From positions 186,001 to 250,000 of the forward strand of contig JAPJBO010000240.1 of assembly GCA_030068145.1 (NCBI GenBank): DNA of 64,000 bases, given 5' to 3'. Source of the stretch: Diplonema papillatum. Its lineage: Eukaryota > Euglenozoa > Diplonemea > Diplonemida > Diplonemidae. Positions 6,742 to 59,872 of this stretch are shown here, one piece after another (the first letter of the stretch is position 1; each line of letters starts with the position of its first letter). A program made the translations under genes and the position numbers. Under the pieces are notes generated by a model, which was given only the letters and a program-made list of their open reading frames with translations, ran no database searches and was not told the DNA's origin.

Positions 6742-7059
6742 CACGTACGCACAAACAAAAACAGAAAAATGTCAGACGGCCGTCTGGCTCGGACCGAGTC
6801 GGAAAAAAAGTGCGAAAAAAGTAAGAAAAGATTTCCGTTGATTTTTGTGGGTTATTTCTGTTTTTCTTTTTTTTTTTAATAGTACATCTGTACTGACGGG
6901 AACATTTCCGGAACAACGGTTGCACATGAAAGAGAAAACGTTTATACCCTCTACACGCGAAGAACAAGAAACTTTTGCCTTATCATTTTCATCACCTTTG
7001 GTCAGTTGATGCTGATCGTCCGTTGCTTCGTTTATCAGTGCAAGCCCCAACTCCGGAAA

Positions 7060-7206
7060 TGTTCTTTTGTATAAGCACCTGCTTTGTAGGTAATGCTTGA
7101 GGAGACTGCCAGTTGCGATAGATCAAAGGAGGTAAATGTGCTGTAGCCCACACGAAACACAGGTAAATCTGGGTTTAGTGGCGGGCGTAAGCGTTCAACA
7201 AAAAAA
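7060..7206 (-). repeat. SINE-like dispersed repeat, copy B
   Basis: Nearly full-length copy of the family seen at 3015 and 58086. It contains GTATAAGCACCTGCTTTGTA at the A-tail end and GGCGGGCGTAAGCGTTCAAC at the other. It lies in an intron, antisense to the gene. Confidence 0.75.
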
Positions 7207-7614
7207 TGTGGGTCATGACCGGAGAAGTGACCGGCACAGTGCGTACATTGCGCTGTCCTCATCCACAGTCCATATCCAGGCCTAGGCCCAGTGGGTGGCC
7301 ACAAAACTCTTGGCACGGGATGGGCTGAAACGTTAAGAAAGTGAATATGCAAAACTCTGGGGCAATGTGAGTGGAACAGACTGCAACTCGAAAAGGGTAC
7401 TGGGTTCCAGAACTTTCTTGCCGCAGTACCCGTCGCCGGTTTGGTAGCACGGCGTAGCACCTCTCCAAAAGAGACGGCCGAAAGAGGCAGATATTGCAGA
7501 CATCAACGCGCACTTCGGAGAAAGTTGCGTCCAGGGGATCGAAGAATCACTTGTTGCATCTATAATATTGTGTTATCCTTTTGCACACCACACCACACCA
7601 CACCACCCCTTCAG

Positions 7615-14605: not shown

Positions 14606-17600
14606 ATGCACGGCTACAGTGCACTCTTCGGAGTAGCACTTTTTGCCGCCATGCATCCCCCTGCGAACGGTACCTGTCTACAGGTGACCGACATCAGTTT
14701 GCTGTGCAGTGCTTTTTCTTCGCAGACGTGCGCCGTGTGGGCCGGGAAGGGCACGATGATGAAGCTTCCTTCAGCCTGCACCGCTACGAAAGATTTTGAG
14801 TTGCAATGCGAGGCGGACGCCGCCGTTCTTTCCTGTCCCGCTGGGGACTGTTTCACGGTAGCGACCTCTTCTGTGAACAACAACGTGACTCTGAAGATCA
14901 CGTCGTGCACCATCTTCGGCGCCTTCGTGGTCTCAGGCGAACTTGAATCCGGATATACCCGGGCTTTGGTCCTTGAAACGGTTCACGTTGAAGGTACTCT
15001 TGAAGTTAGAACCGTTCCGGTTGCGCTACATGACGTCAGTATTTTGAAGACGACGTCTCTTAGCTCAGCCCTCCTTCTCAATGGTATCCAAGCAACTGCG
15101 ACGACGCTGACCATCCGCTGTGATCCCAGCTATTCACCGTCACTAGGGGGTGGCATTTACTTGAGCAATACTCAGTTTTCAGCCGAGGTTGTAGATATTG
15201 AGAATTGCAGCTCGACCCTTTATGGCGGGGCTATGTTTGCGACGGCGTCTACTGTGACGATAACGGAGAAACTCGACGCTCGGAATGCTGTTGCCCCAGG
15301 TGGAGGAGCATGCATCCACATCACTGCTGAATCTTTGTTGACGGTTCTCGGCACGTTGAGTGTGGAGAATTGTGAAAGTGCAACAGGCAACGGCGGGGCT
15401 TTGGTACTTTGGAGGTCAACCATGACAGCAAGGACCGTATTCGCTCGTGATAGCAGTGCAGACACGGGCGGCTGTGTTATGCTGTATCAATCTACACTCG
15501 ACGTCAGCGACCGTGTTGTGCTGGAACGGTGCCAGTCTTCAGGGGCAGGAGGAGGGATGCACCTAGATAGCTCCACGGTGAATAGCAACGCTCTTACAAC
15601 TTCTTCCTGCGAAACCACATCATCGTTCGGAGGCGCTATATATGCCAAAGGTAATAGTGATATAACAGTTACTAATTGGGTCACAGTCTGCAATCGCGCG
15701 TCTCGAACAGGAAATGATGTTCGCTGGTCAAGCACCGGCCGGCTGGTGGTTGGAACAGTGCGAATATACACGGACGAAACAACCTCCAACCCCGATCAGC
15801 CAATGACTAATAACTTGGCGCGCATATCTTTCAAAAACGGCACGATATTCACTAACAGCCTCACGCAGGCTCAGATTTCATCGAGCACCTCTATGCCTTC
15901 ACTCACTCAACATCCGTCAGTCGGGTGTCCAGTAGAGGAGGGTGTGCCGCGCTTCCTCCCGCCGAAGCAGGCGTGTGGGTACACGACTTGTATCGAAGAG
16001 CCCGAGAACACATGTAGAAATATCACGGATTGTCATTGGACAGGGTTCGATTGTGTGATACGCAATGAAAGCGAGAGCATCACGCGCACGTATACACTCG
16101 ATAGCGGTGTCGTAGAATCGCCGTTGTCAAATTCTACCGTGACGTTGTTTTGGTTCTCGGATTCATTGACCGCCAGCCCTCGGGCTGCGCGTGAAATATG
16201 CAAATTGTTGTGTAACGGAGGCCGCACTGGTCGCTTGGCTCGCGTCTTGAGTGATGACGAAGCGGTTCGAATGACGTTGATGCGAACGACGACGTCTGAT
16301 GCCTTTCTCGACGGGTCCGATGTGGATCTTGAAGGCATGTGGCAGTGGTCAGATGGAGTTCCATTTTACTTCGCACATGGATGTTTGCAACATGGTTGTC
16401 CGTGGGAACCCAAACCGAGTGCCGGCTCCGACTTTCTTGCGATCACATCGAGCGGAAAGTGGAAAGGTGTTGGCCAAGATGAGTTGCCCTTTTATTGCGA
16501 GTTTCCATGTGTAGAGGACAGCGAATGCAATGCCGACGGTGATACGTGTCCGTACAAGTGTCAGCAAGGTCGATGCGAAACAAGCCGAGATTGCTGCGGA
16601 GGCGTTTCGGCCGAGGATGAGTGCAAGAACCATCATCCTCATTGTGAGTGGGTGACGGGTGAGAATGGGACTACGTCGTGTGCGGAGGCCATTGGTGTCT
16701 GTCTGGAAGTGAGCAACATTGACGACCTGTGCCATTTGTTCCTCACCTCGACTTGCGCGGTGTGGGCGGGTAACAGCTCAGCGATACAAACGCTTCAGGA
16801 ACCATGCATCGCACAACACGACTTCAGTTTAACCTGCACAGACGATGCAGACGCAATTGCTTGTGAGAATGGCGTCTGTTTCAGCATTGGGCCCGAGGTC
16901 GCAGGTGTAGAAATGAACAACGTGACGGTGACCGTAACATCTTGCAAGTTGTCAGGCACGGTGTCGTGGCTTGGTACAAAGCACAACACTTACACCCGTC
17001 GCCTTGTTTTCGAAGATTCCATTGTCGAGGGAAACATCGTGGCATCGAATTTCCCAAGTGTGCAGTTCTACAACGTGTCGGTCTTAAAAGGTGCGTCTTC
17101 TGAGCCGGCGGTTTCTATGAGCTCTGTCGAAGAGGTGTCAGCTACGACGCTGACCATCCGTTGTGATCCCAGCTATTTACCACAAGATGGGGGCGGCATT
17201 TACTTGTACAATGCGCATTTTGCAGCCGAAGTTGTAGATATTGAGAATTGCAGCGCGACCCGCTATGGTGGAGCTATGTTTGCGACGCAAGAGTCCACTG
17301 TGACGGTAACGGAGAAACTCGACGCTCGGAAAGGTGTTGCCCCAAGTGGAGGAGGATGCATCGCCTTGACTTATCAAGTTTTGCTGACGGTTCTCGGCAC
17401 GTTGAGTTTGGAGGATTGTGAAAGTGCAGAAATAGGCGGGGCATTGCTTCTTTGGAGGTCAGCCATGACAGCAAGGACCGTCTTCGCTCGTGATAGCATT
17501 GGAGGCAGCGGCGGCTGTGTTATGCTGTTTGAATCTACACTCGACGTCAGCGACCGTGTTGTGCTGGAACGGTGCCAGTCTTCAGGGGCAGGCGGAGGGA

Positions 17601-44600: not shown

Positions 44601-47600
44601 GGGACGAACCGTCGCTCCGCTGCCAGGTCGACGACTGCAGGGAGGGGTCCGCTGGGAACGATGCTTGCTCGCTGGCCGGGCAACTGTGCGTGGACGACAA
44701 CCACAAACCGTGCAGTGACGACTGGTACTGTCAGTGCACGCCGCCGTCCGTGAGCAGCACCGTGGTGGTGCACGGACGCGCGGAATGCCACCTCTACGAG
44801 TGTATCGCGACGTGCGAAACCTGCGCGGAAGGCGTCTGCACCGATGAGCAGACCTGCCACGACCCGGACACCTCCGACGCTTCGCTGGCTGATTGGGAGT
44901 GCAGATGCCAATCGCCTTACACGGGATCAGCCGCGACAACAGCGGCCGTCTGCCGGATCGACGAGTGCAAGGAAACATGCGGCCACTGCGAGAACAGCAC
45001 GTGCGACGGGCCGTTGAACCAGATGTGCGTAGACACCGACCATTCCGCACGGAACGACTGGGTGTGCGTGTGTCCTCCCCCAAGCGGGAAGACGCAAGTC
45101 GGAGAGGCGGCTTCGGACTGCAACGTCGACGAGTGCACCCTGTACAACGCGACGTGCGCCGGCCAGTTCTGTTTCGACGCTGACGAGTCGAAGCTCGGCG
45201 ACTGGATGTGTTACTGCACGGCACCCTTCGAAGGCGTCGGCACAGCGATGCGCGCGAATTGTACCGTCGATGAGTGCGCGGCGTCCTGTGACACGTGCGA
45301 GGGCGGCGTGTGCAGTGCAGGGGTGGCGGTGCAGTCGTGCAACGATCCGGACACGAGCGAGCACGCGTTGTCGGACTGGACGTGCACGTGCGGGACCACG
45401 TCTGTCAGCGCCACCGCCAGGCAGGCTAACTGCCCGTTCGACGAGTGCAGCGAAGCGTGCAAAACGTGCGCGAATCAGACGTGCGCGGCTGTCGAACAGT
45501 TCTGCAGCGACCCGGGGGCGATGTCGCTGTCCCTGTCGGATTGGTCGTGCACGTGCCCCCCGCCGGCGTTGAATGCGTCTCTGACGTCAGCGGTCTCGTC
45601 GTGCGACGTGAACGAGTGCGCGCTGCCCACGCCGGCGGGCACGTGCGCCGCGCTGAACCAAACGTGTACCGACCCGAGCAAGGAAACGGCCGACGACTGG
45701 CGATGCGAGTGCGAGCTTCCACTGAACGGGTCCGCCACCGCGCGCGGAGCGGACTGCACCCTCGACGAGTGCACGGCGTCGTGCGAAACGTGCGAAAACG
45801 GCGCGTGCAACGAGGACAGCCCCGTGCCGCAAACCTGCCACGACCCCGACGTGCGCGCGGACTCATTGTCGGACTGGACGTGCACGTGCTCGGCCAGCAC
45901 CGCCGTCGGTCGATCAGCGAACTGCGACTACGACGAGTGCACTGCCGATTGCGACGCATGTGCCCGCGGAGTCTGCGAAGAAAACAGACAGTCGTGCCAG
46001 GACCCGAAGCGGAAGGTGAAGTCCCTCGGCGACTGGTTCTGCTCGTGTCCGGCCCCCTCGCAAGCCGTACAAGTCGGTGGCGCTGTCTCCTCCTGCGTGT
46101 TCGACGAATGTGTGATACACAACACGACGTGCACCAACGTCGACCAGGACTGCGTCGACCACAACACGGGAGCTGGCGGGTCCGACTGGGAGTGTGTGTG
46201 CAGGCAGCCGGCAAGCGGCGCGCAAACAGCTGGAGTCGCGTCGTGCACCATTGACGAGTGTGACGCGGCGTGCGAGACGTGCGAGAACGGCACGTGCTCG
46301 GGCGCGCAGCCGGCGCAGCTGTGCCTCGATGCGGACATCGGCTCGCAGTCGCTGTCCGACTGGGTCTGCAGCTGCCCGCTCGAAAACAAGACCCGTGTCG
46401 CCGCCGCGGCTGACTGCTCTCTGGACGAGTGCACAGCCACGTGCGAGACGTGCGCGGGCGCGACGTGTGAGGAGGCGGATCAAGCTTGCCACGATCTCGG
46501 GCCGACAGAGTCGTCGTTGGGGGACTGGAGGTGCATGTGTCGCGAAGGGGGGTCAAACCGCTCGGCGGCTGTTTCAGCCGTCGTAAACTGCTCCTTCGAT
46601 GAGTGCGACAGGACGCGGGCGACCTGCAGCCAAGCGGGGCAGATCTGCGTGGACGAGGACCACTCCGTAGCGGGCGACTGGCGGTGCGTGTGCCCGGAAC
46701 CCGGTAGAGGTGACGCGGTTGCGGGAGTGGCGGTGTGCCTCCTCGACGAGTGCGCGGACACTTGCGCCACCTGCGAGAACGGCGCCTGCTCCGCCCCGGA
46801 CACCGGGGTGAAGCAGACGTGCAGCGACCCGAACCAGAACGCCACCGCAACCTCCGACTGGATGTGCGTCTGCGACGGCACGACGCCGGCGCGGGCGGCG
46901 GTCGCAGGCGTGGCTGACTGCCCCTTCGACGAGTGCACCGCCACGTGCGGCAGCTGCGCGGCGGCGAACTGCTCGCAGGCCGGCCAGATCTGCGTAGACG
47001 CGCGCGCGATGTCGAGCTCCCTCGGCGACTGGATCTGCGTGTGCGCGCCGCCGGCGATGGGGAAGAGCGCGGTAGCGGCGCCGGTCGCTGACTGCTCGCA
47101 CGACGAGTGCTCCGATGCGGAGCACGCGGCCCTCTGCGAAGCAGCCGGGCAGAAGTGCATCGACGACGACCATCTCGTCATGGGCGACTGGATCTGCGCG
47201 TGCGAGGCCCCGCTGGAAGGGCAGGCGTTGCGGTCGATCGCCGGGTGCTCCATCGACGAATGCGCAGCGACGTGCCCTTCGTGCCACGGGGGGGAGTGCA
47301 CGGCCGCTAAGCAGGACTGCGAGGACCCGAACAACAGCTCGAAGTCGTTGTCCGACTGGCTGTGCTCGTGCGGGACCTACAGCACCGGAGCCGCCGTGGG
47401 GGCTCCCGCGCACTGCGTCTTGGACGAGTGCGTCGGAGACTGCGAGCACTGCGAGCTGGGGCGGTGCGCGGCAGCGAACCAAACGTGCCACGACCCGGAC
47501 AAGACGGCCACGTCGATATCTGACTGGACCTGCTCCTGCCGTGCGCCGGCTTTCGGCATCAACGTCCGGGGCCCGGCGGCGAGCTGCGTCGTCGACGAGT

Positions 47601-50600
47601 GCGCGCAGGCGGAAAACGCGGGCGCGTGCCTGCTCCATGGGCAGACCTGCGTCGACCCCGACACGACGGCGGGCAGTCTGAACGACTGGGAGTGCCACTG
47701 CGTGGTTCCCCCCGCGGCTGAGGCGGCGAAGAGGGTCGGGGCCGCTGCGTTGTGCAGCTACTCGGGCGAGTGCGCGACCGACAGCGCTGCGAAGCGGTGC
47801 AAGGAGTTTGGGAACCTGTGCTACGACTACGGATCGGACGGCGACTGGGAGTGCCACTGCACGCCGCCGTTGACGGGGGCCGTCGGCAACGCAACCTCCG
47901 ACATCGAGTGCACGCTCGATGAGTGCGCGGAGACGTGCAATACGTGTGCGACGACCCTCGGTTCGACGGTAAACGCATGCGATGCCGTGGGACAGACGTG
48001 TGTGGACCCCGACCTGAAGCAGCTGCATGACTGGATGTGCGTGTGTCCGTCGCCGTCGACATCGTCGAGCGTCGCGGGCCCCGCCCTCGTTTGCGAGATC
48101 GACGAGTGCGGCGCCGGCCTTTGCGCCACGTGCGCCAACGACACGTGCGCCGCCGCCGGCCAGCTCTGCGACGACCCGGACAGAAGCGTCTTCGCGCTGT
48201 CCGACTGGACCTGCTCGTGCGTGCCGCCGGGCGCTGGGGCCGCGACCGGCCAGGCGGCGCACTGCGCGTGCGACGAGTGCCTCTCGCCGACGGTGTGCGC
48301 CGCGGCAGACCAGACGTGCACAGACCCGAACACGACGTGCGCCGCCGCAGGGGCGGGCGACTTTGTCTGCGCGTGCAAGGCGCCGTTCAGCGGGTTCGCC
48401 ACCGGCGTGGCAGCGCTGTGCGGGGTCGACGAGTGCGAGGAGTTCAACCTGACGTGCGTCGCTGAAGGGCAGGTGTGCTACGATCCGGATGTATCCGCGA
48501 TGGGCGATTGGGGTTGCGCGTGCGCAGAACCTGCGTCCGGGTCGGCTGCGGGTGCGGTCGCCACGTGTGTGTTGGACGAGTGCACGGCGGAGTGTTCGCA
48601 CTGCGCAAACGGAGTGTGCGGCACCGGCACCGGACGGCAGCTGTGCGTCGACCCGGACCGCAACGCCACGTCCACCAACGACTGGATGTGCGTTTGCGTG
48701 CAGCCTGGCGCCGGCGCCGCAACCCGCCGCCCCGCGGCTTGCGTCTGCGACGAGTGCCTGACCACGCGCGTCTGCGCCCTCGCGGACCAGCTTTGCCGAG
48801 ATCCCAACACGACGTGCCACGCCGATTCCACCAACGACTACCTCTGCGAATGCTCACCCCCAAAAACGGGAGTTGCTGCTGCGCAACCAGCCTCGTGCAC
48901 CACAGACGAGTGCACGGATTACGCGTACATTTGCGAAGTCGTTGGGCAAGCGTGCCTGGACCCGGATCAAGGTAAAAGCAACGACTGGCGGTGCGAGTGC
49001 GACCTGCCGTCTACCGGAGTCGGTCTTATGCAGCCCGCCGCATGCTCTCTGAATGAATGTCAGGAGAGCTGTCCCCACTGCTCCAACCGGCAGTGTGAAC
49101 TGGCCGGACAAACGTGTGCCGACCCTGATGAATTCTCAATCCGAGACTGGACGTGTACATGCGTCTTGCCAGGAAAAGGAGAGGCTACAGGGCAGGCCGC
49201 AACGTGTGTCTGCAATGAGTGCTTGACAGTGACAGTTTGCAAAGAAGCAGGTCAGACGTGCTACGATAGGAACACCAGCTGCGGCGACACGCCCGACTTC
49301 GAGTGCAGCTGCACGCCACCGGAGATGGGCATCGGTGTTGGCGAGATTGCGGCGTGCGGCGACAACGAGTGTGACACAGAAGCATCGGCATGCATCAACG
49401 CCGGGCAGACTTGTGTTGACTACGAACTTGCAACCCCAGGCACGTGGCAATGCAAATGCCCCCATCCAGCTTCTGGCGTAGAACTGATGGCGCCGGCGAT
49501 ATGCATTCTCAACGAATGCGACACAGAGTGTGCTCACTGTGCAAACGGAACGTGCGAGAGAGGTGGTCAGGTTTGCCATGACCCAGACCCCAGCGACGCA
49601 TCTACAAACGATTGGATGTGCCTGTGCTACGAAGGCGCTGGTAAAGCGACAGGCAAGACAGCGGCCTGCGTATGCAACGACTGCTTGACGGACACCACCT
49701 GCGAAGACGCGGGGCAAAAATGCACAGACGGAAACACGACGTGCCACGGGGGCAAGGCTCCGGACTTCGTGTGCTCCTGCCACCTGCCGAAAACAGGCTC
49801 TGCCGTCGCGGAGGTTGCGGCTTGCGAGATGGACGAATGCTCCGTGTTTGAAGCTGTCTGCGCGCATGCGAACCAGACGTGTCTCGACGCTGATCGGACA
49901 GGGGACAACAACTGGGTGTGTCGCTGTCAGGAGCCGTCGGATGTTGTGGAAACCACCGCCCCGGCAACGTGTGTGTACACCCTGGACGAGTGCACGGAAA
50001 CGTGTCCGCATTGTGCGAACGGAACGTGCAGCGCGGCTGGGCAAGAGTGCAACGACCCGCACCACAGCTCGCTGTCGACCCACGACTGGACGTGCAACTG
50101 CAAGTCGCCTGCCACAGGGAAGGCCACCGGCAGCCCGGCGCTGTGCGCGTGCGATGAATGCCTGCGCAGCTCGGTCTGCGTCGACGCAGGGCAGGATTGC
50201 TACGACACCAACACGACGTGCGGAGGGGAGCCAGACTTCGAATGTGCCTGCAAGTCGCCCTCCACCGGCGCCGCCGTTGGCGAACCCGCGCTGTGCGGGG
50301 TGAATGAATGCGCGTCTCACGGAACCGTCTGCCTGCGGGTAGGGCAGGTGTGCTTCGAACCCAACGCGACGCAAGCCGCGGACTGGCAGTGCCTCTGCCC
50401 GCCGGGAGCGTCCGGAGACGCGGGGCAGCAGCAGGCGGCGAAGAAATGCGCGCTCAACGAGTGCGAGGTCGCCTGCGCAACGTGCGCGAACGGTGTCTGC
50501 GCAGCCGCTGGGCAGAGCTGCTTCGACACCGACACTGACCCGTTCAGCCCGAATGACTGGGTATGCAAGTGTCTCGCGCCGTCGTCGAGCGAAGCATCGC

Positions 50601-52036
50601 TGGGCCCTGCCGTCTGCCGCGTCGACGAGTGCACCGGGAACCCGTGCGCCGAAGGCTGCGAAGCGGGGTCGTCGGACTGCCTGCAGACGTGCCACGACTC
50701 CAACACGAGCGCCGTGAGCCTCGGAGACTATACCTGCGCGTGCCCGCCGCCCTCTGGCAATGTCTCCTCCACCGGCAAACCCGCCAATTGCGGACGCGGC
50801 GGCAGCGGTGGTAGCAGCAGCCCCGCGCCGTCGGCTGAGCGCGAATGCGAGGCGCTGAGCTATTCTTTGGACGCCTGCGAGCAGGCGCCCGAGTGCGAAT
50901 GGACGTCGGGGGCGTGCGCGGCCATCGATTGCGACTTCGACGGACGGCGAGACTGCAGCGCCAGGGCGGCGTGCGAGTGGGCGGAAGGCGAGTGCGTCGC
51001 GTCAAAACCGTGCGGCAGGCGTGGGCTGGCCGCGTGCGAAGCAGGTGACCGGTGCCGCATCCTGCACGGCGCGTGCGTCATGAACCCGGTGCACGGCGTC
51101 TGCCAGGGTGGCTGCTGCCACTGCGAGCACGGCTGGTCTGGCCACGAGTGCAGTGCCTGCGACTTCGCGCGGAACCCGGACGGATCGTGCGCCGTCTGCT
51201 CGCGGCGGGAAACATGCAGCGGCCACGGCTCGTGCAGCCCGGCCCGCCTGTGCATCTGCGACTCCGGCTGGGTGGGCGCCGGCTGCGGGGAACGGTCGTT
51301 CTGCACGCCCGAGGGCCCTTCGTGGTTCACAATGTACCCGAACCAACCCCTGCGGGGCCGTCCGTTCACGCTCGTCGTGCACGGGTGCTATTCCAGCGCG
51401 CTCCACAGGATTAAAGTCGTCGACGAAGCTCTCGACTGCGAAGCCAGCGTGCCCGTCGACTGCATGGCTCCCGCCGCCGGCAAGATCTTCCTCAACGACG
51501 ACTGCAACGCAGCGTCGACAGACTATCCCACAGTTGAGAATGCGTCGAGCCAAGAGCTGTTGGTAGGGGTGGAAGCGACGTTCGACGGCGCAACTAAACA
51601 GTACAAGGTGTGCTGGTTCGGTGGGCCGGATGGCTGGCGCGAGGTGCGGACGCACCTGCGGAGTGGTAAGCGCACCGTGATCATCACCGTGCAGGGTGGG
51701 GCCACGGAGGACACCGGAGCTGTGAGCGCGGCGGCATCGGCCGGGGCGCAGCCGCAGTTCTGCTGCGATGGGCTGGCACTGGGCGAGAGCTGCTTCCCTA
51801 GTGCCGTGGCCATCGTGGTCTGCGCGCTGTGCGTCGTTCTCTGCCTCTTCGTCGCGTGGAAGCTCGCGCAGACGCGCCAAGACCTCTACGACGTGCGGCA
51901 TCGATACGTGGCGGAATTCGACGAATTCGACGTCGAAATGGACCGGTCCATGTGGCTCCTGTCTGCGACAGCGAGCGACCTCCACACCTCAATGGATGGT
52001 CGGTCGCTGTCCATGTCCAGCCCCCCTGACAAGTAG
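14606..52036 (+). CDS. Giant modular cell-surface protein, 12,476 aa, single exon
   Basis: One ORF of 37,431 bases without introns. The start follows a likely splice acceptor and opens with a signal peptide (hydrophobic YSALFGVALFAAM, cleavage near residue 22). Approximate order by residue: 23-8265, twelve beta-helix/C-type-lectin-like modules; 8265-8360, Cys/Trp-rich repeats; 8362-8530, fibrinogen/intelectin-like domain starting DGGGWKLVRH; 8585-8950, lectin-like domains 13 and 14; 8950-9150, Cys-rich; 9152-9377, vWFA-like 1; 9400-9680, Cys-rich; 9682-9894, vWFA-like 2; 10008-12066, about 38 EGF-like repeats; 12165-12232, two EGF domains; then an extracellular domain; TM helix 12400-12421 (AVAIVVCALCVVLCLFVAW); and a 55-residue tail rich in Ser/Asp/Met. 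Many N-x-S/T sites and paired cysteines fit a secreted glycoprotein. The likely role is adhesion, prey or particle capture, or surface coat. Stop is TAG at 52034. The even spread of domains and lack of frameshifts over 37 kb argue for strong selection. Confidence 0.97.
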   Translation: MHGYSALFGVALFAAMHPPANGTCLQVTDISLLCSAFSSQTCAVWAGKGTMMKLPSACTATKDFELQCEADAAVLSCPAGDCFTVATSSVNNNVTLKITSCTIFGAFVVSGELESGYTRALVLETVHVEGTLEVRTVPVALHDVSILKTTSLSSALLLNGIQATATTLTIRCDPSYSPSLGGGIYLSNTQFSAEVVDIENCSSTLYGGAMFATASTVTITEKLDARNAVAPGGGACIHITAESLLTVLGTLSVENCESATGNGGALVLWRSTMTARTVFARDSSADTGGCVMLYQSTLDVSDRVVLERCQSSGAGGGMHLDSSTVNSNALTTSSCETTSSFGGAIYAKGNSDITVTNWVTVCNRASRTGNDVRWSSTGRLVVGTVRIYTDETTSNPDQPMTNNLARISFKNGTIFTNSLTQAQISSSTSMPSLTQHPSVGCPVEEGVPRFLPPKQACGYTTCIEEPENTCRNITDCHWTGFDCVIRNESESITRTYTLDSGVVESPLSNSTVTLFWFSDSLTASPRAAREICKLLCNGGRTGRLARVLSDDEAVRMTLMRTTTSDAFLDGSDVDLEGMWQWSDGVPFYFAHGCLQHGCPWEPKPSAGSDFLAITSSGKWKGVGQDELPFYCEFPCVEDSECNADGDTCPYKCQQGRCETSRDCCGGVSAEDECKNHHPHCEWVTGENGTTSCAEAIGVCLEVSNIDDLCHLFLTSTCAVWAGNSSAIQTLQEPCIAQHDFSLTCTDDADAIACENGVCFSIGPEVAGVEMNNVTVTVTSCKLSGTVSWLGTKHNTYTRRLVFEDSIVEGNIVASNFPSVQFYNVSVLKGASSEPAVSMSSVEEVSATTLTIRCDPSYLPQDGGGIYLYNAHFAAEVVDIENCSATRYGGAMFATQESTVTVTEKLDARKGVAPSGGGCIALTYQVLLTVLGTLSLEDCESAEIGGALLLWRSAMTARTVFARDSIGGSGGCVMLFESTLDVSDRVVLERCQSSGAGGGMHLDSSTVNSKALTTSSCETRKSFGGAIYAKGGSDITVTNWVTVCNRASQTGDDVRWSSTGRLVVGTVRIYTDETTSNPDQPVTNNLAGISFQNGTIFTNSLTQAQISSNIALPSLTQHPSVGCPVEEGVPRFLPPKQACGYTTCIEEPENTCRNITDCHWTGFDCVIRNESESITRTYTLDSGVVESPLSNSTVALFWFSDSLTASPRAAREICKLLCNGGRTGRLARVLNDGEAVRMTLMRTTTSDAFLDGSDVDLEGTWQWSDGVPFYIAHGCLQHGCPWEPKPSAGSDFLAITSSGKWKGVGQDELPFYCEFPCVEDSECNADGDTCPYKCQQGRCETSRDCCGGVSAEDECKNHHPHCEWVTGENGTTSCAEAIGVCLEVSNIDDLCHLFLTSTCAVWAGNSSAIQTLQEPCIAQHDFSLTCTDDADAIACENGVCFSIGPEVAGVEMNNVTVTVTSCKLSGTVSWLGTKHNTYTRRLVFEDSIVEGNIVASNFPSVQFYNVSVLKGASSEPAVSMSSVEEVSATTLTIRCDPSYLPQDGGGIYLYNAHFAAEVVDIENCSATRYGGAMFATQESTVTVTEKLDARKGVAPSGGGCIALTYQVLLTVLGTLSLEDCESAEIGGALLLWRSAMTARTVFARDSIGGSGGCVMLFESTLDVSDRVVLERCQSSGAGGGMHLDSSTVNSKALTTSSCETRKSFGGAIYAKGGSDITVTNWVTVCNRASQTGDDVRWSSTGRLVVGTVRIYTDETTSNPDQPVTNNLAGISFQNGTIFTNSLTQAQISSNIALPSLTQHPSVGCPVEEGVPRFLPPKQACGYTTCIEEPENTCRNITDCHWTGFDCVIRNESESITRTYTLDSGVVESPLSNSTVALFWFSDSLTASPRVAREICKLLCNGGRTGRLARVLNDGEAVRMTLMRTTTSDAFLDGSDVDLEGTWQWSDGVPFYIAHGCLQHGCPWEPKPSAGSDFLAITSSGKWKGVGQDELPFYCEFPCVEDSECNADGDTCPYKCQQGRCETSRDCCGGVSAEDECKNHHPHCEWVTGENGTTSCAEAIGVCLEVSNIDDLCHLFLTSTCAVWAGNSSAIQTLQEPCIAQHDFSLTCTDDADAIACENGVCFSIGPEVAGVEMNNVTVTVTSCKLSGTVSWLGTKHNTYTRRLVFEDSIVEGNIVASNFPSVQFYNVSVLKGASSEPAVSMSSVEEVSATTLTIRCDPSYLPQDGGGIYLYNAHFAAEVVDIENCSATRYGGAMFATQESTVTVTEKLDARKGVAPSGGGCIALTYQVLLTVLGTLSLEDCESAEIGGALLLWRSAMTARTVFARDSIGGSGGCVMLFESTLDVSDRVVLERCQSSGAGGGMHLDSSTVNSKALTTSSCETRKSFGGAIYAKGGSDITVTNWVTVCNRASQTGDDVRWSSTGRLVVGTVRIYTDETTSNPDQPVTNNLAGISFQNGTIFTNSLTQAQISSNIALPSLTQHPSVGCPVEEGVPRFLPPKQACGYTTCIEEPENTCRNITDCHWTGFDCVIRNESESITRTYTLDSGVVESPLSNSTVALFWFSDSLTASPRVAREICKLLCNGGRTGRLARVLNDGEAVRMTLMRTTTSDAFLDGSDVDLEGTWQWSDGVPFYIAHGCLQHGCPWEPKPSAGSDFLAITSSGKWKGVGQDELPFYCEFPCVEDSECNADGDTCPYKCQQGRCETSRDCCGGVSAEDECKNHHPHCEWVTGENGTTSCAEAIGVCLEVSNIDDLCHLFLTSTCAVWAGNSSAIQTLQEPCIAQHDFSLTCTDDADAIACENGVCFSIGPEVAGVEMNNVTVTVTSCKLSGTVSWLGTKHNTYTRRLVFEDSIVEGNIVASNFPSVQFYNVTVESSTEGVPAVQLTSIDEVSGTALRIRCGDGTVPIYGGGLYVVDARVALEAVEISDCAAKQTGGGLYALRSAVNVSKVLVENCAAGSDGGGVMLSASTFGSPSTSLTMRGCSAGNNGGGFLQTEDSHIAAAAVVADRCAANNSYGGAMYFHQSSSATFGSMVVSRCTAEYAGGLYVDGELNVRGTSTFEHNEARLNGGAMFVDGQAVVTFNVLSTRRCVSNAGYGGSVFGNDGASVDVEQWSGVCNSAFAGANELYWGSSNTLRVVDAHIYVDDGCLAPDAVVGGSHPTIKLAQGSIRTNSLTASQISSSVALNTLDLQPSDGCPVEYGQLTTCGYTTCVEEPQRICENVSVCHWNGAACSVVDETKSVPAYTLYSGMLENTMNRSETPFWYSNKVTVLDSRVAKFICTTLCYNGRDGRLARMVSGDEGARMTALQPTPRDALLDGSDAAVEGEWTWSDGIVFWSAVHECLQYDCPWKPEPTAADGVMHLTEGSMWQAAGEEDVPFFCEFPCADDGECNDDGGRCPYKCNLHGRCVVSRACCTNLPDETSCVTHHPHCEWVPGDNGTAVCADAGAFCTVVTDLDELCGVMVSQPCAVWAGSGSSVQWSPRACIATHDFSLSCTEDADAIACADDGVCFNIGAADGAQVNNVTLTVTSCKFSGSMTLAGRHHAVHVRRAVLENSAIEGNLRVADFPSLHLFNVTVVGTTMNASAVEIDTVDEVTGTLLRVRCGDRHEDPVMGGGIFLKSSRVDLASIAVSGCAAKGHGGGVYITSSVLTASESFSVQTGAAGESGGCVYALDSHLNVSQDFDVHACTAELGGGVLLRNSTLGSPQASLTMQDCSSTGGGGCFYQTEGCAVEAATVALEGCAVNGSDGGGLQLEQSSTASFGSLVVQNCTAVSGGGVWVDGRLNVTGAATFEACTSSSDGAAVYLSTHGSATFGILHTQHCVSTSGYGGSMYGLTGATAVVSRWIGVCNSAHEGGNEAYWSGTLFLTIDDALIHVDEYSRAPGSIVEGASVNTRLRAGMLYTNSLTAGQVLSDVVLRSLSLEPSQGCPAKLGQPEGCGYTNCVEEPRNVCDNTTVCRWNGETCVFKDPAQSVPAYTLYSGVFEVAPNRTDNLFWYSKDAVAARPHVASEICAKLCSGGVPGRLARMLSDEEGVRMLSLLPDGAAEAAFIDGSDAAVEGTWQWSDGVVFWSTACLQADCPWGPALNDTDDYLRLSPDGSWATASEGLSPFFCEFPCVTDGDCNAGGDTCPYRCGPNGRCERSRACCGNVAAEGECRSHHPHCEWRGAGAAGHCAAADEVCAVVYDLGELCGLFVTQGCAVWAGNGSAVQTLPDTCVAVQNFSLTCTDTSDAIACSGDCFTLGLDLQTIEDVSVSVTSCRLSGPIAIKAIPNDAFIRQLVLEDVEIDGALAVSGVAKLLIYNVSVAASVAGVPGVQLSDVGAAAATVLAIRCGRMASIPNSGGGLALASTAFQADVLDVTGCEAVLGGGVFADDSTLSVVTRLAVRSCYASSLGGGMYLSASFLNASKVLHVEDCESGSEGGGIYLHSGRVAANEASFDQCVSVTEFGGAVRMQPMSELTAQSLRARNCSATDGAGISAQNATLTIRAAWFERCVTSANGSAIHAAASHVTLGTLNTLFCSATSGYGGAVYSSGSAIEVELWNAVCNKASDGGSLVHSMSSVGVVVESVNVYVDEQSQDPTALLTGSTSDVDLRKGTLYTNKLTQSQASSNPALQHMTVEPSIGCPVTYGQPTTCGYTRCTEEPQVTCEGTSVCRWNGVECLPKEEASGVPTYTLTDGVAERGNRTETVFWLSNAREADPAVAGAICAVLCDEGRPGRLARVVSPRETARMASLLPPLVNGATDGSDAAEEGTWAWSDGAVFWTLGFGCWQADCPWDGAQKVPGNDYLQLTPEGNWTAVAGGGAATPFFCEFPCALDSDCNGGGKTCPYKCNLEGRCEVGGECCGDIHNEVTCEAHRPHCEWVVPAVGSGDAVCTEAEDVCIEFANVNDLCGLMVSAPCAVWTGAGKGTQTIPQECIAKHNFTLSCADTADALACSTSGACFGVAVGSANVANVSVTVANCTLSGAVRFEGNKELGFSRGIVLENVRVNGALAVAGLTAVGLRNVSVLNGVDSLSAVSFESVDAVSGDVLRVLCRERLLLPANGGGVFFEGGSMELEGLHIEACAARSYGGGCFVAGGATVNVSGQFAVDDCRAASGGGALYVGGKSTFRARTVAASRNSAAAGTGGTVYLHDSATMHTVDVSVTNGTARHCGGIYLQAGAAWDSARASMERCSSDFHGGAVHQAAGSSVAIRGSFRTLFCTSNSPSHGGGSLYMQTLATFEAEAWAAVCNTAKGAYGNDMHLSSGVVAVERLLLYVADDSPFPTAPAVGASNLLVANGTVYSNELTYAQLAAAGLGNLAVAPSRGCPTAIVAKTECGYTACDEGTEGACANATECRWDAEASACTVGDDAGGEPGYTLRDGVAEDRANRSTLSFWYSGGLTALSRLVAGEICGTLCRNGRPGRLARVLHSAEAARMAALRAGAGGAFVDGSPSAAAPGVWQWADGSAYWTAEHGCVQEECLWDTPPASPATDRSMQLTASNHWVPSEAPASFFCEFACVSDGDCRDGTATCQRKCGPNGRCVADDSCCGLLGSEGACRDPGQSCEWVAAAAGGSAAFCRRVECLVVRDLAQLCRAFVTQACAVWAGTGSVVQTLPRTCVATHTFNLTCSQGSDALGCPSTGCFSLVPAVVQPAGVTVTVSTCALFGTVSVRGGKGQNVTRELVLEGVNVTGLLRISGFTNVSLDGVSVDGIVQDAPGVELTAVDWADIVSLDVDCSERVGPPMYGGGVLISESTAAVVSLRVQRCSAKSHGGGVHLTASTLHVAGTVRVTDCSALVGGGGVSLSSSSSIAGGSLAVERCSATNTGGAAVFLADSSRLAVGVLSAGNCTSQNGAVYIGTGCSVAAHEGWFERCVASGNGGAVYLGTGGSAEFEVFNTVGCTARGTGGSVYANGRNLLRAGVWNAVCNKAGAAAGDELSASDAVDIAVGTLRAHVADDTIGARSIIQYSGDPSTLAIGGGALYTNRLAQADVAGGYLGALAVAPSRGCPSTFGREVGCGYATCPGEMPAEACGKIGFCSHDGEACAAKNASETFPVYAAGYDGVLEGNGSTAAGIRFWFSGPGISALDVSVAAEVCSVLCDNGRRGRIARVTSPAEVARLTALRGSDAQQQDAFVDGSDQADEGRWQWSDGATFWTTAYGCIQPVCPWVGGKPDAAFDTMRLTPAGEWKGGDGPAPFFCEFPCTADGDCNAGGDPCPLACGPQGRCVLDAECCGSFSTEAACAPHKPHCAWDESAAANTGACVQSECHTVDDINELCNLFLVHTCAVWMGTGKFVQTLPASCLALHNVSLTCAADADAIACPAGDPCMVFGPESSVITDIVVNITGCAFVGNTAFRGSRSTVHARQLVLGSVAVGGSLEVSQLPNLTLRDVTVDNNQPEVPAVTLRQVTAADAVALDVRCSLPQADAPIYGGGLHLAESSLRADNAAIRNCSAKSLGGGLYAAGSTLEVRGTLTVSGCTATASGGGLYITQSTVNANEVTAEACKAGSDGGGAMYAGGQSSFESSHLSATGCAARHGGAVYVEEGSSVAADTALFETCTADYHGGALYLDRGAAAEFSLLHTAGCSSRTAGYGGGSLSVFPGSTFRTDRWFAVCNTAATGGGDLFADLPGTVEVRTLVVHVADTARREPTPIVSGSLPAVNITGGFVYSNAWSPALDPTLHELILRRGRGCPRTLAQPTACGYTTCAEEGEVSCSGLSGCSWNGSVCVVVAGEANAVPAYTAGSGRIEAPGVGSDTQFWYSDAIVADPRTAGGICAGLCVGGRTGRLSRMLSADDGVRMLALQASPAAAFLDGSDAETEGTWQWSDGVVFSTRGFDCLQVLCPWNGSQANSPGVGHLQLAPDGTWLAAGEGVSAPFYCEFACVDSTQCNAGGVCPYTCSKLGRCVLDAECCPAYQDGTACQQHAPHCAWRDASGAQAGACVPAECQSVTDINQLCSMFLTGKCALWAGATAGGNQVLPRACVAVHDFELTCADNADAIECPSSPTEECFTIGPKSAHVGNVTVAVRSCTLKGSVAVKGRREEAYERRLVLEDVDIAGSLWIDAFDGLTAAGVRVSNALPNVPAVRIASVAHANVTGLSIECSGLSSTAPVFGGGLHLASTTLVAGAVDIRRCFAKTSGGGVYAAQGTVFTARALTIGFCAAGTSGGALYADAGAALDFGDAVANSCTATAAGGRGGGFFLHENVVMAAASLSATGCSAPGGKGGAAFLGVNSSLAAGVAWFEACEAAEQGGALFMNTRSSANFSTLNTVGCSSPSPSGLGGSIFTEADTTLHAQAWNAVCNVVGSSTGNDLYSRQPADIRIETLTAHVSDTARNPKSPVQILLGDASVVAINGGAVFSNTVTYADLAASAFLHALSVEPSVGCPATLALPTACGYTGCNATNKTDCSAVSGCAWTDGACGVEAGKGVLMYTLEDGALEGMSAAGTGFWYSRSVTAESPAVAGEICRVLCSGGRGGRLARAVSLDEVDRLSALQPAPAEAMLDGADATAPDVWAWADGVVFWERSAGCLQRDCPWGPIPQQQQAGEGRGLVLSPAGDWRAGASGAAPLPFFCEFPCADDGDCNGAGEACPYSCGYNGRCEVRRECCGSFGLEATCDLHAPTCSWAGSECEASALCPTVVDAASLCDALLSGSCAVWAGAAGSGLQTLPRTCALTRSFELNCGDGADALLCPAGLDCFAVGPASTHIGNVSLTLSSCTFRGPTGISGRKEANLTREVVLRGVAVDGGFAVSEFSRAVFDNVAVRGSAPGTSAVKISAVDEVEGTAIRVRCVGGTPVDYGGGLHLAASSMRIGVLQISDCRAATHGGGLYASSSTVTAGEITLRRCTAGTSGGGVYVRAGAVSAAAVTIDSCGASAGGGGGVYLDAATAADADAWVVTRCSSLYGGAVYMNTDSKLTGAYAWFENCTAEHYGGGVYMNSRASAGFGVLNTRTCACTSDFSRGASVYAYQQNVFTAGVWNADCNAVAGDQSNDLYCGTPAAVTISDLRLDVDDASANPKAPFACPKAEVLGGVLRTDRLTEAEIAASVYKTMELKSSQGCGARAGGAVVCPLEPVCSGATEAACGGKGGACKWLRDCVPSISVYDGVVENASRTEDTPFWYSNGATAGSVHAAADVCRSMCVKGRLGRLARVLSTTDADRLQAIAQATAAMAYVDGSDAVEAGTWRWSAGGVFWTTSGLCQQSSCPPWTPAPPTAGSADHYLQFSPATAGWGAHPGDTPAGFFCEFPCAEDGHCNSGGGCAFACSPGGRCVVNERCCSAHVNESACEAGQCGWNAEYGTCSDRRCLFTSEDECTADARCAWHADCADPLRGNCTEKRCEAAGEAACVVDAACTWDVAGQTCSLFGCAKAFGSECCGRNALCTWADGACVHKPSCGEVDGGGWKLVRHLNQGDAAFFMTNDGLAGTWTSGRRSGNSVAAETVDETFSVPFDAGEYNQLLFSTASCGTWLVVNEAELLPGGGTDPCVAKSSESPLPHYASWGLGLEPAGSRLAVSIPTGDGSGKQGILYAEDGTSTALHGALLRAEGGLNVWIRESASPPAKGACADAGATPVPPPGDGCFGVAVCSPYDQQTCAGQGLCKWEEEGQNAGAGACVRRYSMGDGTMELGAAADVAFWHSKDVAAGGADAAGICSLLCDDNGRRGRLARVLTEGELTRLAGLRHASTAGNATAFLDGTDDEGRWVWTDGTVLWDTEKGCQQETCPWAAGEPASGSGPRLALSGDGRWVAADGGAARPFFCEFGCADDGGCGGAEVCRQGRCVAGSRCAAAGCGGLSAAACAGSALCVWNAPAAACAQKYTAGGGVQEGARSPDIQFWLSPPGKTEDAGTAEEVCRSLCSATGRAGRPARVLSQDEGLRLGMMAVGRSTGSWLDGTDNGATATWNWSDGTVFWETGSGCFQGWCPWGAAEPTTRAVTSFLRIDANGGWSTAAGDEELGFFCEFPCANSYDCNANGEFCPAMCNSQGRCEANAQCGTAARCDLYRAEADCSGSERPACAWLQAAGEKGTCVDLSCRHTGQATCSADANCAWSSECYEAGGGACVEKRCTAAGRALCTADPRCAWAPQDGCGFAACGQHVTERCCGWDATCRWDVANAPGYCAPKPCAAAHQTQDACTTDTSCSWAQTGGAGQCEEVACNGLQQCACRRSDRCSWNAKAARCTHVEFAQCATMDLAVLIGGSASAGQPFARHPHGFFAATGAVNEWLRKLPLSGEKAAAAASGVPYGVRIAQVQYAGVTTAGGPKPVKTQAQPGTGTGGFLSGDHGEVAADLAYLEAQYLAGDNLLVAGGLEAAAATFDRTGGSAGRKRVVLVVANEAIGDALDVGVNQTLADLKQRLGVEVFGVVLRRYQTHEAPDIAAQASLEAITSPAAADHVTNVHIDDFATLLASICDPSSKFGERLSSPSTAPPCSLYTDSNLCAKDAGCVYSAVDRECAASECTKLCTKDQCEAAAAAQHLCVWSADGRCLKESVCAFTDKVGCEGTTLEDCVWADEGCELAPCTWNKHEDACDADPADCTWWDRTGAAGCIATPCIGYSSLECDVADKCEMKVDVCDAQAGSVLSCRVAGCSVYGLASTCATDPRCQWTGTCLMKPCAQYEDELCCGTHRQCEWDVSTAPATCQQNICYSLGGAVDQCKAHAQCMWLASTCVAFDCKHFATQCDCNQKEACYWKRDLTTSQWNTTATREGGQCVAAEYGLCPQMDVVVAFDGSLAAAARYGRHPNGYHSTVAALRRWAEELPLGFGAGPAAVVRLAFAQYSGTSTASESGRAAAARAGAGATGNATLLAADLDWHDSNPLGGEPVIAGGIAEAASIFSNTPIDDGGGATSSRQRVLLMLASGDFESSGTKDALDRLDVLEVRRYGWVMQKSAMVSHPEGIALGKMRALTSAVQANHTRSGTLDEVVGALRSLCDPRSQWGAHGAAGAPPADEHLPCSGFVAEPACEADSGCVWEAGMCTNSACLSVCDAGACTSVATANCTWAGVGCRDTPVVDCRCKYEGADVAANKHLCENDGACWWDEPSLRCQVDDCREGSAGNDACSLAGQLCVDDNHKPCSDDWYCQCTPPSVSSTVVVHGRAECHLYECIATCETCAEGVCTDEQTCHDPDTSDASLADWECRCQSPYTGSAATTAAVCRIDECKETCGHCENSTCDGPLNQMCVDTDHSARNDWVCVCPPPSGKTQVGEAASDCNVDECTLYNATCAGQFCFDADESKLGDWMCYCTAPFEGVGTAMRANCTVDECAASCDTCEGGVCSAGVAVQSCNDPDTSEHALSDWTCTCGTTSVSATARQANCPFDECSEACKTCANQTCAAVEQFCSDPGAMSLSLSDWSCTCPPPALNASLTSAVSSCDVNECALPTPAGTCAALNQTCTDPSKETADDWRCECELPLNGSATARGADCTLDECTASCETCENGACNEDSPVPQTCHDPDVRADSLSDWTCTCSASTAVGRSANCDYDECTADCDACARGVCEENRQSCQDPKRKVKSLGDWFCSCPAPSQAVQVGGAVSSCVFDECVIHNTTCTNVDQDCVDHNTGAGGSDWECVCRQPASGAQTAGVASCTIDECDAACETCENGTCSGAQPAQLCLDADIGSQSLSDWVCSCPLENKTRVAAAADCSLDECTATCETCAGATCEEADQACHDLGPTESSLGDWRCMCREGGSNRSAAVSAVVNCSFDECDRTRATCSQAGQICVDEDHSVAGDWRCVCPEPGRGDAVAGVAVCLLDECADTCATCENGACSAPDTGVKQTCSDPNQNATATSDWMCVCDGTTPARAAVAGVADCPFDECTATCGSCAAANCSQAGQICVDARAMSSSLGDWICVCAPPAMGKSAVAAPVADCSHDECSDAEHAALCEAAGQKCIDDDHLVMGDWICACEAPLEGQALRSIAGCSIDECAATCPSCHGGECTAAKQDCEDPNNSSKSLSDWLCSCGTYSTGAAVGAPAHCVLDECVGDCEHCELGRCAAANQTCHDPDKTATSISDWTCSCRAPAFGINVRGPAASCVVDECAQAENAGACLLHGQTCVDPDTTAGSLNDWECHCVVPPAAEAAKRVGAAALCSYSGECATDSAAKRCKEFGNLCYDYGSDGDWECHCTPPLTGAVGNATSDIECTLDECAETCNTCATTLGSTVNACDAVGQTCVDPDLKQLHDWMCVCPSPSTSSSVAGPALVCEIDECGAGLCATCANDTCAAAGQLCDDPDRSVFALSDWTCSCVPPGAGAATGQAAHCACDECLSPTVCAAADQTCTDPNTTCAAAGAGDFVCACKAPFSGFATGVAALCGVDECEEFNLTCVAEGQVCYDPDVSAMGDWGCACAEPASGSAAGAVATCVLDECTAECSHCANGVCGTGTGRQLCVDPDRNATSTNDWMCVCVQPGAGAATRRPAACVCDECLTTRVCALADQLCRDPNTTCHADSTNDYLCECSPPKTGVAAAQPASCTTDECTDYAYICEVVGQACLDPDQGKSNDWRCECDLPSTGVGLMQPAACSLNECQESCPHCSNRQCELAGQTCADPDEFSIRDWTCTCVLPGKGEATGQAATCVCNECLTVTVCKEAGQTCYDRNTSCGDTPDFECSCTPPEMGIGVGEIAACGDNECDTEASACINAGQTCVDYELATPGTWQCKCPHPASGVELMAPAICILNECDTECAHCANGTCERGGQVCHDPDPSDASTNDWMCLCYEGAGKATGKTAACVCNDCLTDTTCEDAGQKCTDGNTTCHGGKAPDFVCSCHLPKTGSAVAEVAACEMDECSVFEAVCAHANQTCLDADRTGDNNWVCRCQEPSDVVETTAPATCVYTLDECTETCPHCANGTCSAAGQECNDPHHSSLSTHDWTCNCKSPATGKATGSPALCACDECLRSSVCVDAGQDCYDTNTTCGGEPDFECACKSPSTGAAVGEPALCGVNECASHGTVCLRVGQVCFEPNATQAADWQCLCPPGASGDAGQQQAAKKCALNECEVACATCANGVCAAAGQSCFDTDTDPFSPNDWVCKCLAPSSSEASLGPAVCRVDECTGNPCAEGCEAGSSDCLQTCHDSNTSAVSLGDYTCACPPPSGNVSSTGKPANCGRGGSGGSSSPAPSAERECEALSYSLDACEQAPECEWTSGACAAIDCDFDGRRDCSARAACEWAEGECVASKPCGRRGLAACEAGDRCRILHGACVMNPVHGVCQGGCCHCEHGWSGHECSACDFARNPDGSCAVCSRRETCSGHGSCSPARLCICDSGWVGAGCGERSFCTPEGPSWFTMYPNQPLRGRPFTLVVHGCYSSALHRIKVVDEALDCEASVPVDCMAPAAGKIFLNDDCNAASTDYPTVENASSQELLVGVEATFDGATKQYKVCWFGGPDGWREVRTHLRSGKRTVIITVQGGATEDTGAVSAAASAGAQPQFCCDGLALGESCFPSAVAIVVCALCVVLCLFVAWKLAQTRQDLYDVRHRYVAEFDEFDVEMDRSMWLLSATASDLHTSMDGRSLSMSSPPDK
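14675..39400 (+). repeat. Twelve tandem beta-helix + C-type-lectin-like modules
   Basis: Module starts are approximately 14675, 16692, 18735, 20778, 22821, 24930, 27128, 29226, 31276, 33321, 35356 and 37421. Each module opens with a Cys block (LC...CAVWAG...C), then a right-handed beta-helix ladder of GGG-Y/GGA turns with Cys every rung, resembling Chlamydia Pmp and other pectin-lyase-like repeats. It ends in a CxGYTxC box and a lectin-like domain marked by RLARV, DGSD, W.WSDG and FxCEFPC. A CxxxCxxxGRCxxxxxCC tail closes each module. The classical EPN/WND sugar-calcium motifs of C-type lectins are not clearly kept, so sugar binding is unproven. Confidence 0.9.
16692..23190 (+). repeat. Near-identical 2043-bp tandem repeats (modules 2-4 and start of 5)
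   Basis: Three units of exactly 2043 bases (681 codons) follow one another and the first 370 or so bases of module 5 continue the pattern. The C-terminal two thirds of module 1 are also close. Rare differences are shared in a mosaic way. GCACAACACGAC occurs in units 2 and 5 but GCTCAGCATGAC in 3 and 4; CGGGCTGCGCGTGAAATA occurs in 1 and 2 but CGGGTTGCGCGTGAGATA in 3 and 4; ATACGCAATG occurs in 1 and 4 but ATACGTAATG in 2 and 3. This fits recent unequal crossing-over plus conversion. Copy number in the real genome could differ if the assembly collapsed units. Confidence 0.95.
39400..44630 (+). other. Mixed-domain linker region of the giant protein
   Basis: After the twelfth module come short C-x-W repeats (CRAW/CAW types, PSI-like in appearance) and a fibrinogen/intelectin-like domain (about 39690-40190; GGGWKLVRH, AGTW, GGLNVWIRE). 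Two lectin-like domains without beta-helices follow (CEFGC near 40780, CEFPC near 41386), then two vWFA-like domains. In the first vWFA the MIDAS position reads LIGGSAS and in the second AFDGSLA, so neither keeps a full DxSxS metal site. Both have the hydrophobic VVLVVANE / VLLMLASG strand. Domain names other than lectin and vWFA are pattern-based guesses. Confidence 0.65.
44630..50804 (+). repeat. About 38 EGF-like repeats in triplet order
   Basis: Repeats of 45-60 residues share DEC...C..C..G.C....Q.C.DPD...S..DW.C.C..P...G.A....A.C. By eye I count 38. Repeats 2-19 run as triplets of two long units (with ETC..C...C) plus one short unit lacking the CxxC pair. Repeats 22-36 run as triplets A-B-C where B begins DECLxxxVC and carries NTTC with DF or DY instead of DW. 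The change occurs around 48100-48250. Confidence 0.88.

Positions 52037-59169: not shown

Positions 59170-59872
<703 letters not shown>

What the first reader, a model, noticed from the sequence alone, without database searches (positions are those of the whole stretch)
14606..52036. A 12,476-codon single-exon gene for a giant modular surface protein
The ORF runs 37.4 kb with no stop or intron while a neighbouring gene is split by long introns. The combination of beta-helix/C-type-lectin modules, fibrinogen-like, vWFA-like and EGF-like arrays with a signal peptide and one TM helix is an animal-style adhesion architecture in a protist. At well over 1 MDa it is among the largest protein sizes one could expect, and its function is open (prey capture, mating, surface coat).
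Basis: partly seen in the sequence, partly recalled or inferred. Interest (0 to 1): 0.95.

Follow-up and report, generated by a model that had tools for sequence, protein, structure and literature searches.

The report
Giant surface protein family in Diplonema
A marine single-celled flagellate carries an uninterrupted gene for a 1.3-megadalton protein that looks like a sticky surface fibre, and it is one of a family of similarly gigantic genes that I found no description of.

Summary
The ORF is real: 14606-52036, 12,476 codons, no internal stop, 1.29 MDa, where composition predicts about 291 in-frame stops. The genome is Diplonema papillatum: deposited protein DIPPA_31345 matches it at 100% over 2762 residues. 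The ORF is under coding constraint: dN is below dS in every repeat pair where dS could be computed and well below it in every stalk window between three paralogues. Layout: signal peptide; 12 beta-helix + C-type-lectin-like units; a GGGW domain ("fibrinogen-like" is not supported); two more lectin-like domains; two vWA; 38 EGF-like modules; a family-wide C-terminal ectodomain; one TM; short tail. Paralogues of 14,030 and 14,747 codons have the same order with 14 and 15 units and again exactly 38 EGF modules. Two more giants (10,616 and 11,493 codons) use vWA arrays instead. At least 15 open frames of 6,000 codons or more belong to the family, 8 above 10,000; five were read in full. Best reading: a membrane-anchored adhesive fibre with constant stalk and variable multivalent head. 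Canonical sugar-binding and MIDAS motifs are mostly missing, so ligands are open. Expression was not tested.

The parts
14606..52036 (+). giant ORF, 12,476 codons + TAG
14554..14556 (+). CAG after a pyrimidine-rich tract, 49 nt before the ATG; candidate spliced-leader acceptor (inferred)
   Evidence: sequence; 5'UTRs of about 70 bp in D. papillatum (PMC10161547 section 7)
14606..14674 (+). signal peptide (inferred from hydropathy), aa 1-23
14675..39415 (+). distal head: 12 units of beta-helix + CTLD + Cys module (units start at aa 24, 698, 1379, 2060, 2741, 3445, 4174, 4874, 5558, 6240, 6918, 7607)
16697..22825 (+). units 2, 3, 4: three near-identical 2043-bp copies (7, 8 and 1 differences in the three pairs), newest tandem duplication
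39668..40210 (+).
   Evidence: weak similarity to database protein P0052 (8.2e-7)
40325..41386 (+). CTLD 13 and 14
42053..44290 (+). two vWA-like domains with Cys-rich linkers; MIDAS DxSxS not kept
44630..50791 (+). 38 EGF-like modules (aa 10009-12062)
50792..51277 (+). Cys modules and an EGF_2/teneurin-like EGF (below Pfam cut-offs)
51278..51790 (+). C-terminal ectodomain, present in all five giants read; no known family or PDB match by sequence
51800..51856 (+). transmembrane helix, aa 12399-12417
51857..52033 (+). 59-residue cytosolic tail with motif FDEFDVE; motif kept in 14 of 16 family C-termini examined
5315..8929 (+). neighbour gene A, later exons (DUF5107 + TPR), same strand
11882..13153 (+). 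neighbour ORF B, no Pfam match, same strand

Best explanation
The gene encodes one giant type I membrane protein of Diplonema papillatum, a member of a family of giant surface proteins. Shown by sequence: a 12,476-codon constrained ORF with secretory-type start, TM and conserved tail; paralogues with the same order and the same 38-module stalk; a distal head of 12-15 beta-helix/CTLD units whose outer units are gained and lost. Inferred: it reaches the cell surface, stands out as a fibre a few hundred nm long, binds particles, prey cell walls or neighbouring cells through many weak head contacts, and is sorted or linked inside by the acidic F-D-[DE]-F-[DE]-[VM]-E tail. Tandem duplication of distal units tunes reach and specificity while the stalk stays fixed.
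For: Open frame and chance estimate. Purifying selection: stalk dN 0.20-0.43 with dS 1.23-3.27 or not computable (read as saturated) in all 14 windows of all three gene pairs; the last 56 alignment columns were too short to score. Copies 2 and 3 differ at 7 sites, 6 of them third positions. Whole-gene paralogues with matching starts and ends. Same order and exactly 38 EGF modules in 3 of 3 type I genes. Five proximal head units form three-gene clades by position. The C-terminal region gives 38 matches in the genome, 13 of them in open frames of 6,000 codons or more. Lectin-like and beta-helix calls. Over 41 head units the columns conserved at 93% or more inside the helix part are Cys, Gly, Trp, Leu, Gln and Asn only, which favours a binding or structural role over catalysis. 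The D. papillatum genome paper argues for feeding on live eukaryotes (PMC10161547 section 15).
Against: No RNA, ribosome or peptide evidence was available. The Ca/sugar motif WND occurs in 1 of 47 CTLDs of three genes and MIDAS DxSxS in 0 of 2 vWA domains of this gene, so the usual binding chemistry is not shown. Only 3 of 35 testable EGF modules keep D or N at the first Ca-ligand place. The genome paper says that feeding on microalgae was seen in some diplonemids but not in D. papillatum (section 15). Shorter relatives exist (DIPPA_31345 model, 2762 aa, with its own signal-like start). Unit 1 against unit 2 differs mostly by amino-acid changes over the CTLD end.
Confidence: 0.62

Rival explanations
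1. The locus is transcribed or processed into several shorter proteins (internal trans-splicing, alternative starts, or proteolytic cleavage), so the giant chain never works as one molecule.
For: Genes are likely co-transcribed in groups of up to 100 (PMC10161547 abstract); spliced-leader trans-splicing in diplonemids is recalled (a legend seen lists the trait). A shorter relative starts with its own signal-like sequence directly before CTLDs; family genes of 1,236-1,688 open codons share the C-terminus.
Against: Three type I genes keep one frame from the same start to the same tail over 37-44 kb, which separate products would not require; internal pieces would lack a signal peptide (inference).
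Confidence: 0.18
2. A structural surface coat or cell-cell recognition (mating, self) system rather than a prey or particle adhesin.
For: Head units differ in number (12, 14, 15), outer ones turn over and the newest copies (units 2-4) are near the distal end; canonical sugar and metal motifs are lost.
Against: No population data; sexual reproduction has not been observed in D. papillatum (PMC10161547 section 5).
Confidence: 0.2
3. The beta-helix units cleave polysaccharides, making the protein a surface-bound degrader.
For: Right-handed beta-helices are common in pectin lyases (recalled), and this organism grows on pectin (section 15).
Against: No lyase family hit; GG-turn rungs mostly 25-30 residues apart; no conserved charged residue at 93% or more in the helix part of 41 units.
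Confidence: 0.04
4. Assembly artefact or decaying pseudogene.
For: Units 2-4 are near identical, so their true copy number could differ from the assembly.
Against: Copies differ by substitutions, mostly silent; constraint along the stalk; three loci intact; the published assembly used PacBio and Illumina reads and the strain looks haploid (section 5).
Confidence: 0.03

Closest known systems
Deposited D. papillatum proteins: three called 'Neurogenic locus Notch protein', and DIPPA_31345, DIPPA_02028 and others (8 of 52 hits)
   Same: Same EGF-like array (best hit 44% over 97% of the query array); P0001, P0008 and P0019 also carry the vWA domains; DIPPA_31345 is collinear with aa 8586-10696 at 41%
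   Different: The eight models are 1,477-3,287 aa. None has beta-helix units; only DIPPA_31345 has CTLDs (five). P0001, P0008 and P0019 look cut off by eye. 'Notch' rests on EGF similarity only
Animal Notch / fibrillin type EGF-array proteins (recalled)
   Same: Long tandem EGF-like arrays; Notch also has a membrane anchor
   Different: Extra Cys in many modules; D or N at the first Ca-ligand place in 3 of 35 modules; weak Pfam EGF scores
Chlamydial Pmp style beta-helix adhesins
   Same: GG-rich rungs mostly 25-30 residues apart; weak Chlam_PMP hit, E 0.41
   Different: Below the Pfam cut-off; fused in a eukaryotic giant with Cys-rich modules and a TM
C-type lectin-like domain proteins
   Same: CTLD by profile
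   Different: WND motif in 1 of 47
Giant proteins such as titin and PKZILLA (recalled)
   Same: Megadalton size, modular
   Different: Titin is intracellular and multi-exon, PKZILLA is an enzyme; neither is a surface adhesin

Membership tests
C-type lectin-like domain | profile similarity to the CTLD family | tested here: met
   Lectin_C at E <= 1 in 7 of 12 copies, best 2.7e-4; 36 of 42 PDB matches up to E 1 are CTLD proteins, best 0.0041; only 1 of 10 whole units at E <= 0.01
Classical Ca-dependent C-type lectin | WND and EPN/QPD motifs (recalled) | tested here: not met
   WND in 0 of 14 here and 1 of 47 over three genes; no [EQ]P[ND] in 14
Right-handed beta-helix | Pfam Beta_helix above cut-off and rung periodicity | tested here: met
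   PF13229 67.2 bits against cut-off 25.9 for aa 1-4000; 4 of 10 single units at E <= 0.01; 78 bits in paralogue C64; GG spacing mostly 25-30
vWA domain | homology to Pfam VWA | tested here: met
   no direct Pfam hit, but homologous (iE 3.6e-45) to a P0008 region; P0008 matches VWA at 1.5e-31
MIDAS-type ligand-binding vWA | DxSxS motif (recalled) | tested here: not met
   0 of 2 in this gene; kept in 3 of 9 aligned family domains, one of the nine being truncated at that place
EGF-like domain | six Cys with C4-x-C5 spacing | tested here: met
   six invariant Cys in 31 of 31 aligned of 38 modules; Pfam EGF/EGF_CA at E <= 0.1 in 5 and 4 of 31; no PDB match at 0.01
Notch receptor | LNR, heterodimerisation and ankyrin parts (recalled) | tested here: not met
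   no such Pfam match in the parts scanned; a tail of 59 residues leaves no room for ankyrin repeats
Fibrinogen-related domain | similarity to Fibrinogen_C | tested here: not met
   no Pfam or PDB fibrinogen hit, single or profile
Cell-surface protein | found on the plasma membrane | not testable with these tools
   only signal-like start and TM by hydropathy

The most novel reading that the evidence does not exclude
D. papillatum carries an undescribed family of giant single-exon surface genes (8 open frames above 10,000 codons). Its type I members follow a 'constant stalk, variable head' plan: a fixed 38-EGF stalk and anchor, with outer lectin/beta-helix units added and removed by unequal crossing-over, giving strain-specific recognition of prey or partners.
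Probability: 0.35. Interest if true: 0.9.

Novelty: new variant of a known kind. Interest (0 to 1): 0.78.

Why it matters
[quoted passage not shown] A family of megadalton, intron-free, adhesin-like membrane proteins would give direct candidates for how they touch prey or each other, in a species where gene replacement is reported (section 5). It would also show an animal-like adhesion architecture in Euglenozoa, and a test case for expressing 37-44 kb coding sequences.

Tried and rejected
Fibrinogen-like label: dropped after profile searches. Lyase idea: no family hit and no conserved charged residues in the helix. Notch label: EGF similarity only. Bacterial contaminant or chance ORF: excluded by the D. 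papillatum identity and by constraint. Full-length deposited counterpart: none found (lengths about 5,500-17,500; 468 candidates scored, words from residues 4100-5500; about 1,150-3,670) or (about 1,360-4,330); searches scored only the candidates sharing most words, and other lengths were not searched, so a differently cut model could exist. My tail table read four minus-strand loci in the wrong direction; redid them and recounted. In one search the HMM of the C-terminal ectodomain was reported only in C240; this was HMMER's speed filter, and without it all five giants have it. One search repeated the other modules without the filter. A regular expression found the ectodomain in 3 of 14 loci only, so profile A5 holds 3 sequences; no PDB match. 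Literature: the rows listed by searches hold no report of this family; most of these lists show only the top few of many papers.

Full report
Observation. The window holds one ORF at 14606-52036 on the + strand, 12,476 codons and a TAG. The frame is closed by TAA at 14558-14560, just upstream, so 14606 is its first ATG. Local first-order composition predicts 290.9 in-frame stops; the other five frames of the same stretch contain 128 to 302. The product would weigh 1,292,284 Da with 903 cysteines, pI 4.5 and 138 N-glycosylation sequons. GC rises from 0.51 at the 5' end to about 0.70; GC3 goes from 0.55 to mostly 0.75 or more.

Organism. Among 52 relatives of the EGF array, eight are named Diplonema papillatum. 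The own genome has 271,365,524 bases in 2910 contigs, the window being C240:186001-250000; the published D. papillatum assembly has 280,293,864 bp (PMC10161547 section 5). One of the eight, P0019 (DIPPA_31345), matches G000 contig C265 at 100% over all 2762 residues, and the contig length 258,839 equals the one listed for P0019. A first stretch of C265 that I took gave only 60% to P0019, a paralogue. The window is therefore D. papillatum.

Gene context. Two genes lie upstream on the same strand: a DUF5107/TPR gene in several ORFs and an ORF of 423 codons from its first likely ATG, without Pfam match. A pyrimidine-rich stretch ending in CAG at 14554-14556 leaves a 49-nt leader, which would fit a spliced-leader acceptor (inferred; 5'UTRs of about 70 bp are reported; trans-splicing in diplonemids is recalled).

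Anatomy. HMMs built from this protein tile it as: signal peptide; 12 units of beta-helix (about 430 aa), CTLD (about 150 aa) and a Cys module; a GGGW domain; two CTLDs; two vWA; 38 EGF-like modules; C-terminal ectodomain; TM at 12399-12417; 59-residue tail. Family assignments rest on Pfam and PDB profiles and on relatives. The 'fibrinogen-like' domain matches no fibrinogen family. Seven of the 38 EGF modules were left out of the alignment.

Coding and constraint. Units 2, 3 and 4 are 2043-bp copies with 7, 8 and 1 differences (pairs 2-3, 2-4, 3-4), mostly silent. Unit 1 against unit 2 over the CTLD end (747 nt) shows 8 differences in 7 codons, 5 of them changing the amino acid, so this young split is not conservative. 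Among the 66 unit pairs dN is below dS wherever dS could be computed; older pairs have dN 0.43-0.83 against dS above 0.9 or not computable.

A family of giants. The C-terminal 437 residues give 38 matches from 70 scored candidates in the genome, 13 of them in open frames of 6,000 codons or more. I read four paralogues whole: C64 14,030 codons (13,974 from the methionine that aligns with ours), C319 14,747, C390 10,616, C633 11,493; no N and no stop inside. C64 and C319 repeat our order with 14 and 15 head units (split HMM matches merged), 16 and 17 CTLDs, and 38 EGF modules. C390 and C633 have no helix, CTLD or GGGW match even without HMMER's filters; they carry 15 and about 14 vWA domains (16 matches in C633, some split) and 32 and 33-34 EGF modules. 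All five have the C-terminal ectodomain. Distinct open frames of 6,000 codons or more: C319 14,784, C64 14,039, C240 12,491, C633 11,503, C62 10,975, C146 10,910, C4 10,905 (10,894), C390 10,658, C536 8,905, C21 7,727, C366 6,917, C159 6,815, C623 6,559, C1497 6,557, C2196 6,478: 15, of which eight exceed 10,000. Thirteen are tied to the family by the C-terminus, C159 by CTLDs and C62 by vWA domains; the C-terminal matches on C62 lie in other, short frames. Only five were read in full.

Constraint between paralogues. From the GGGW domain to the tail the three type I genes are 57-63% identical; per 300-column window dN is 0.20-0.43 and dS 1.23-3.27 or not computable in all 14 windows of all three pairs. 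So the membrane-proximal third is one selected reading frame at three loci. The head was tested only between units.

Head evolution. In a FastTree of 41 units the five most proximal units of C240 (8-12) group by position with C64 10-14 and C319 11-15. Distal units keep no full one-to-one order, C240 has no close partners of C64 units 7-9, and its units 2-4 are recent. Support values were not printed. In one search (97 matches; 65 of 286 candidates scored, so a lower bound) full helix units lie only in these three genes; three other places (C14, C342, C2052) hold helix fragments, and C159 and a second gene on C319 match only the CTLD part. The GGGW domain is found only in the three (9 of 9 candidates scored, 3 matches); a weak relative is database protein P0052.

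Tail. The motif [FLY][DE][DEG]F[DEQ][VML][ED] occurs in 14 of 16 C-termini examined, that is 14 of the 15 loci that were fetched and not in C633; some tails are identical, 13 distinct ends among the 15. This suggests a shared intracellular partner (inferred).

Function. A secretory start, a TM, a long disulphide-rich stalk and many lectin-like heads point to an adhesive fibre; the length of a few hundred nm is an estimate from recalled module sizes. Canonical sugar and metal motifs are missing from almost all copies, so the contact chemistry must differ or be protein-protein. The genome paper argues that D. [quoted passage not shown]

Novelty. Protein searches found no full-length deposited counterpart in the length ranges searched. 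The head array hit four proteins, E 2e-22 to 3e-4, none with a source name. The rows listed by eight paper searches gave no report. Of PMC10161547 I saw the abstract, sections 5, 7, 14 and 15 and passages; of other papers only search listings. Reports outside this library may exist.

Noticed in passing
window 52240-52397: A fragment of 18S rRNA sequence (Rfam SSU_rRNA_eukarya, 70 bits, antisense, 52270-52383) lies just after the stop codon; 39 other listed places in the genome match 158 bases at 97% (40 of 777 candidates scored).
   Followed up: partly
window 2100-2398 and 2529-2837: Tandem copy (88%) of an early region of the DUF5107/TPR gene, which recalls the repeat-bounded genes described for D. 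papillatum.
   Followed up: no
window 398-983 and 1453-2027: Long inverted repeat, 88.6% identical, possibly a mobile element.
   Followed up: no
window 3480-4622; 59171-59839: 28-copy 41-bp tandem array, and a 669-bp CA microsatellite.
   Followed up: no
G000 C159:183303-243539: Cluster of CTLD matches in open frames of 4457, 2086, 6815 and 1688 codons; four matches of equal score and identity repeat at a 4,461-bp period.
   Followed up: no
L046 (G000 C265:70001-79000): The deposited model DIPPA_31345 runs into non-EGF sequence at its end while EGF-like matches go on downstream in another frame; some family models in the deposited proteome may be cut. Described only.
   Followed up: partly
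window 14606-52036: GC and GC3 rise steeply along the ORF; the 5' units with the recent duplication have GC3 about 0.55, later parts mostly 0.75 or more.
   Followed up: no
window 44960-50623: EGF modules follow a three-module pattern (8-8-6 Cys early, 9-7-6 Cys later), a higher-order repeat, by eye.
   Followed up: no
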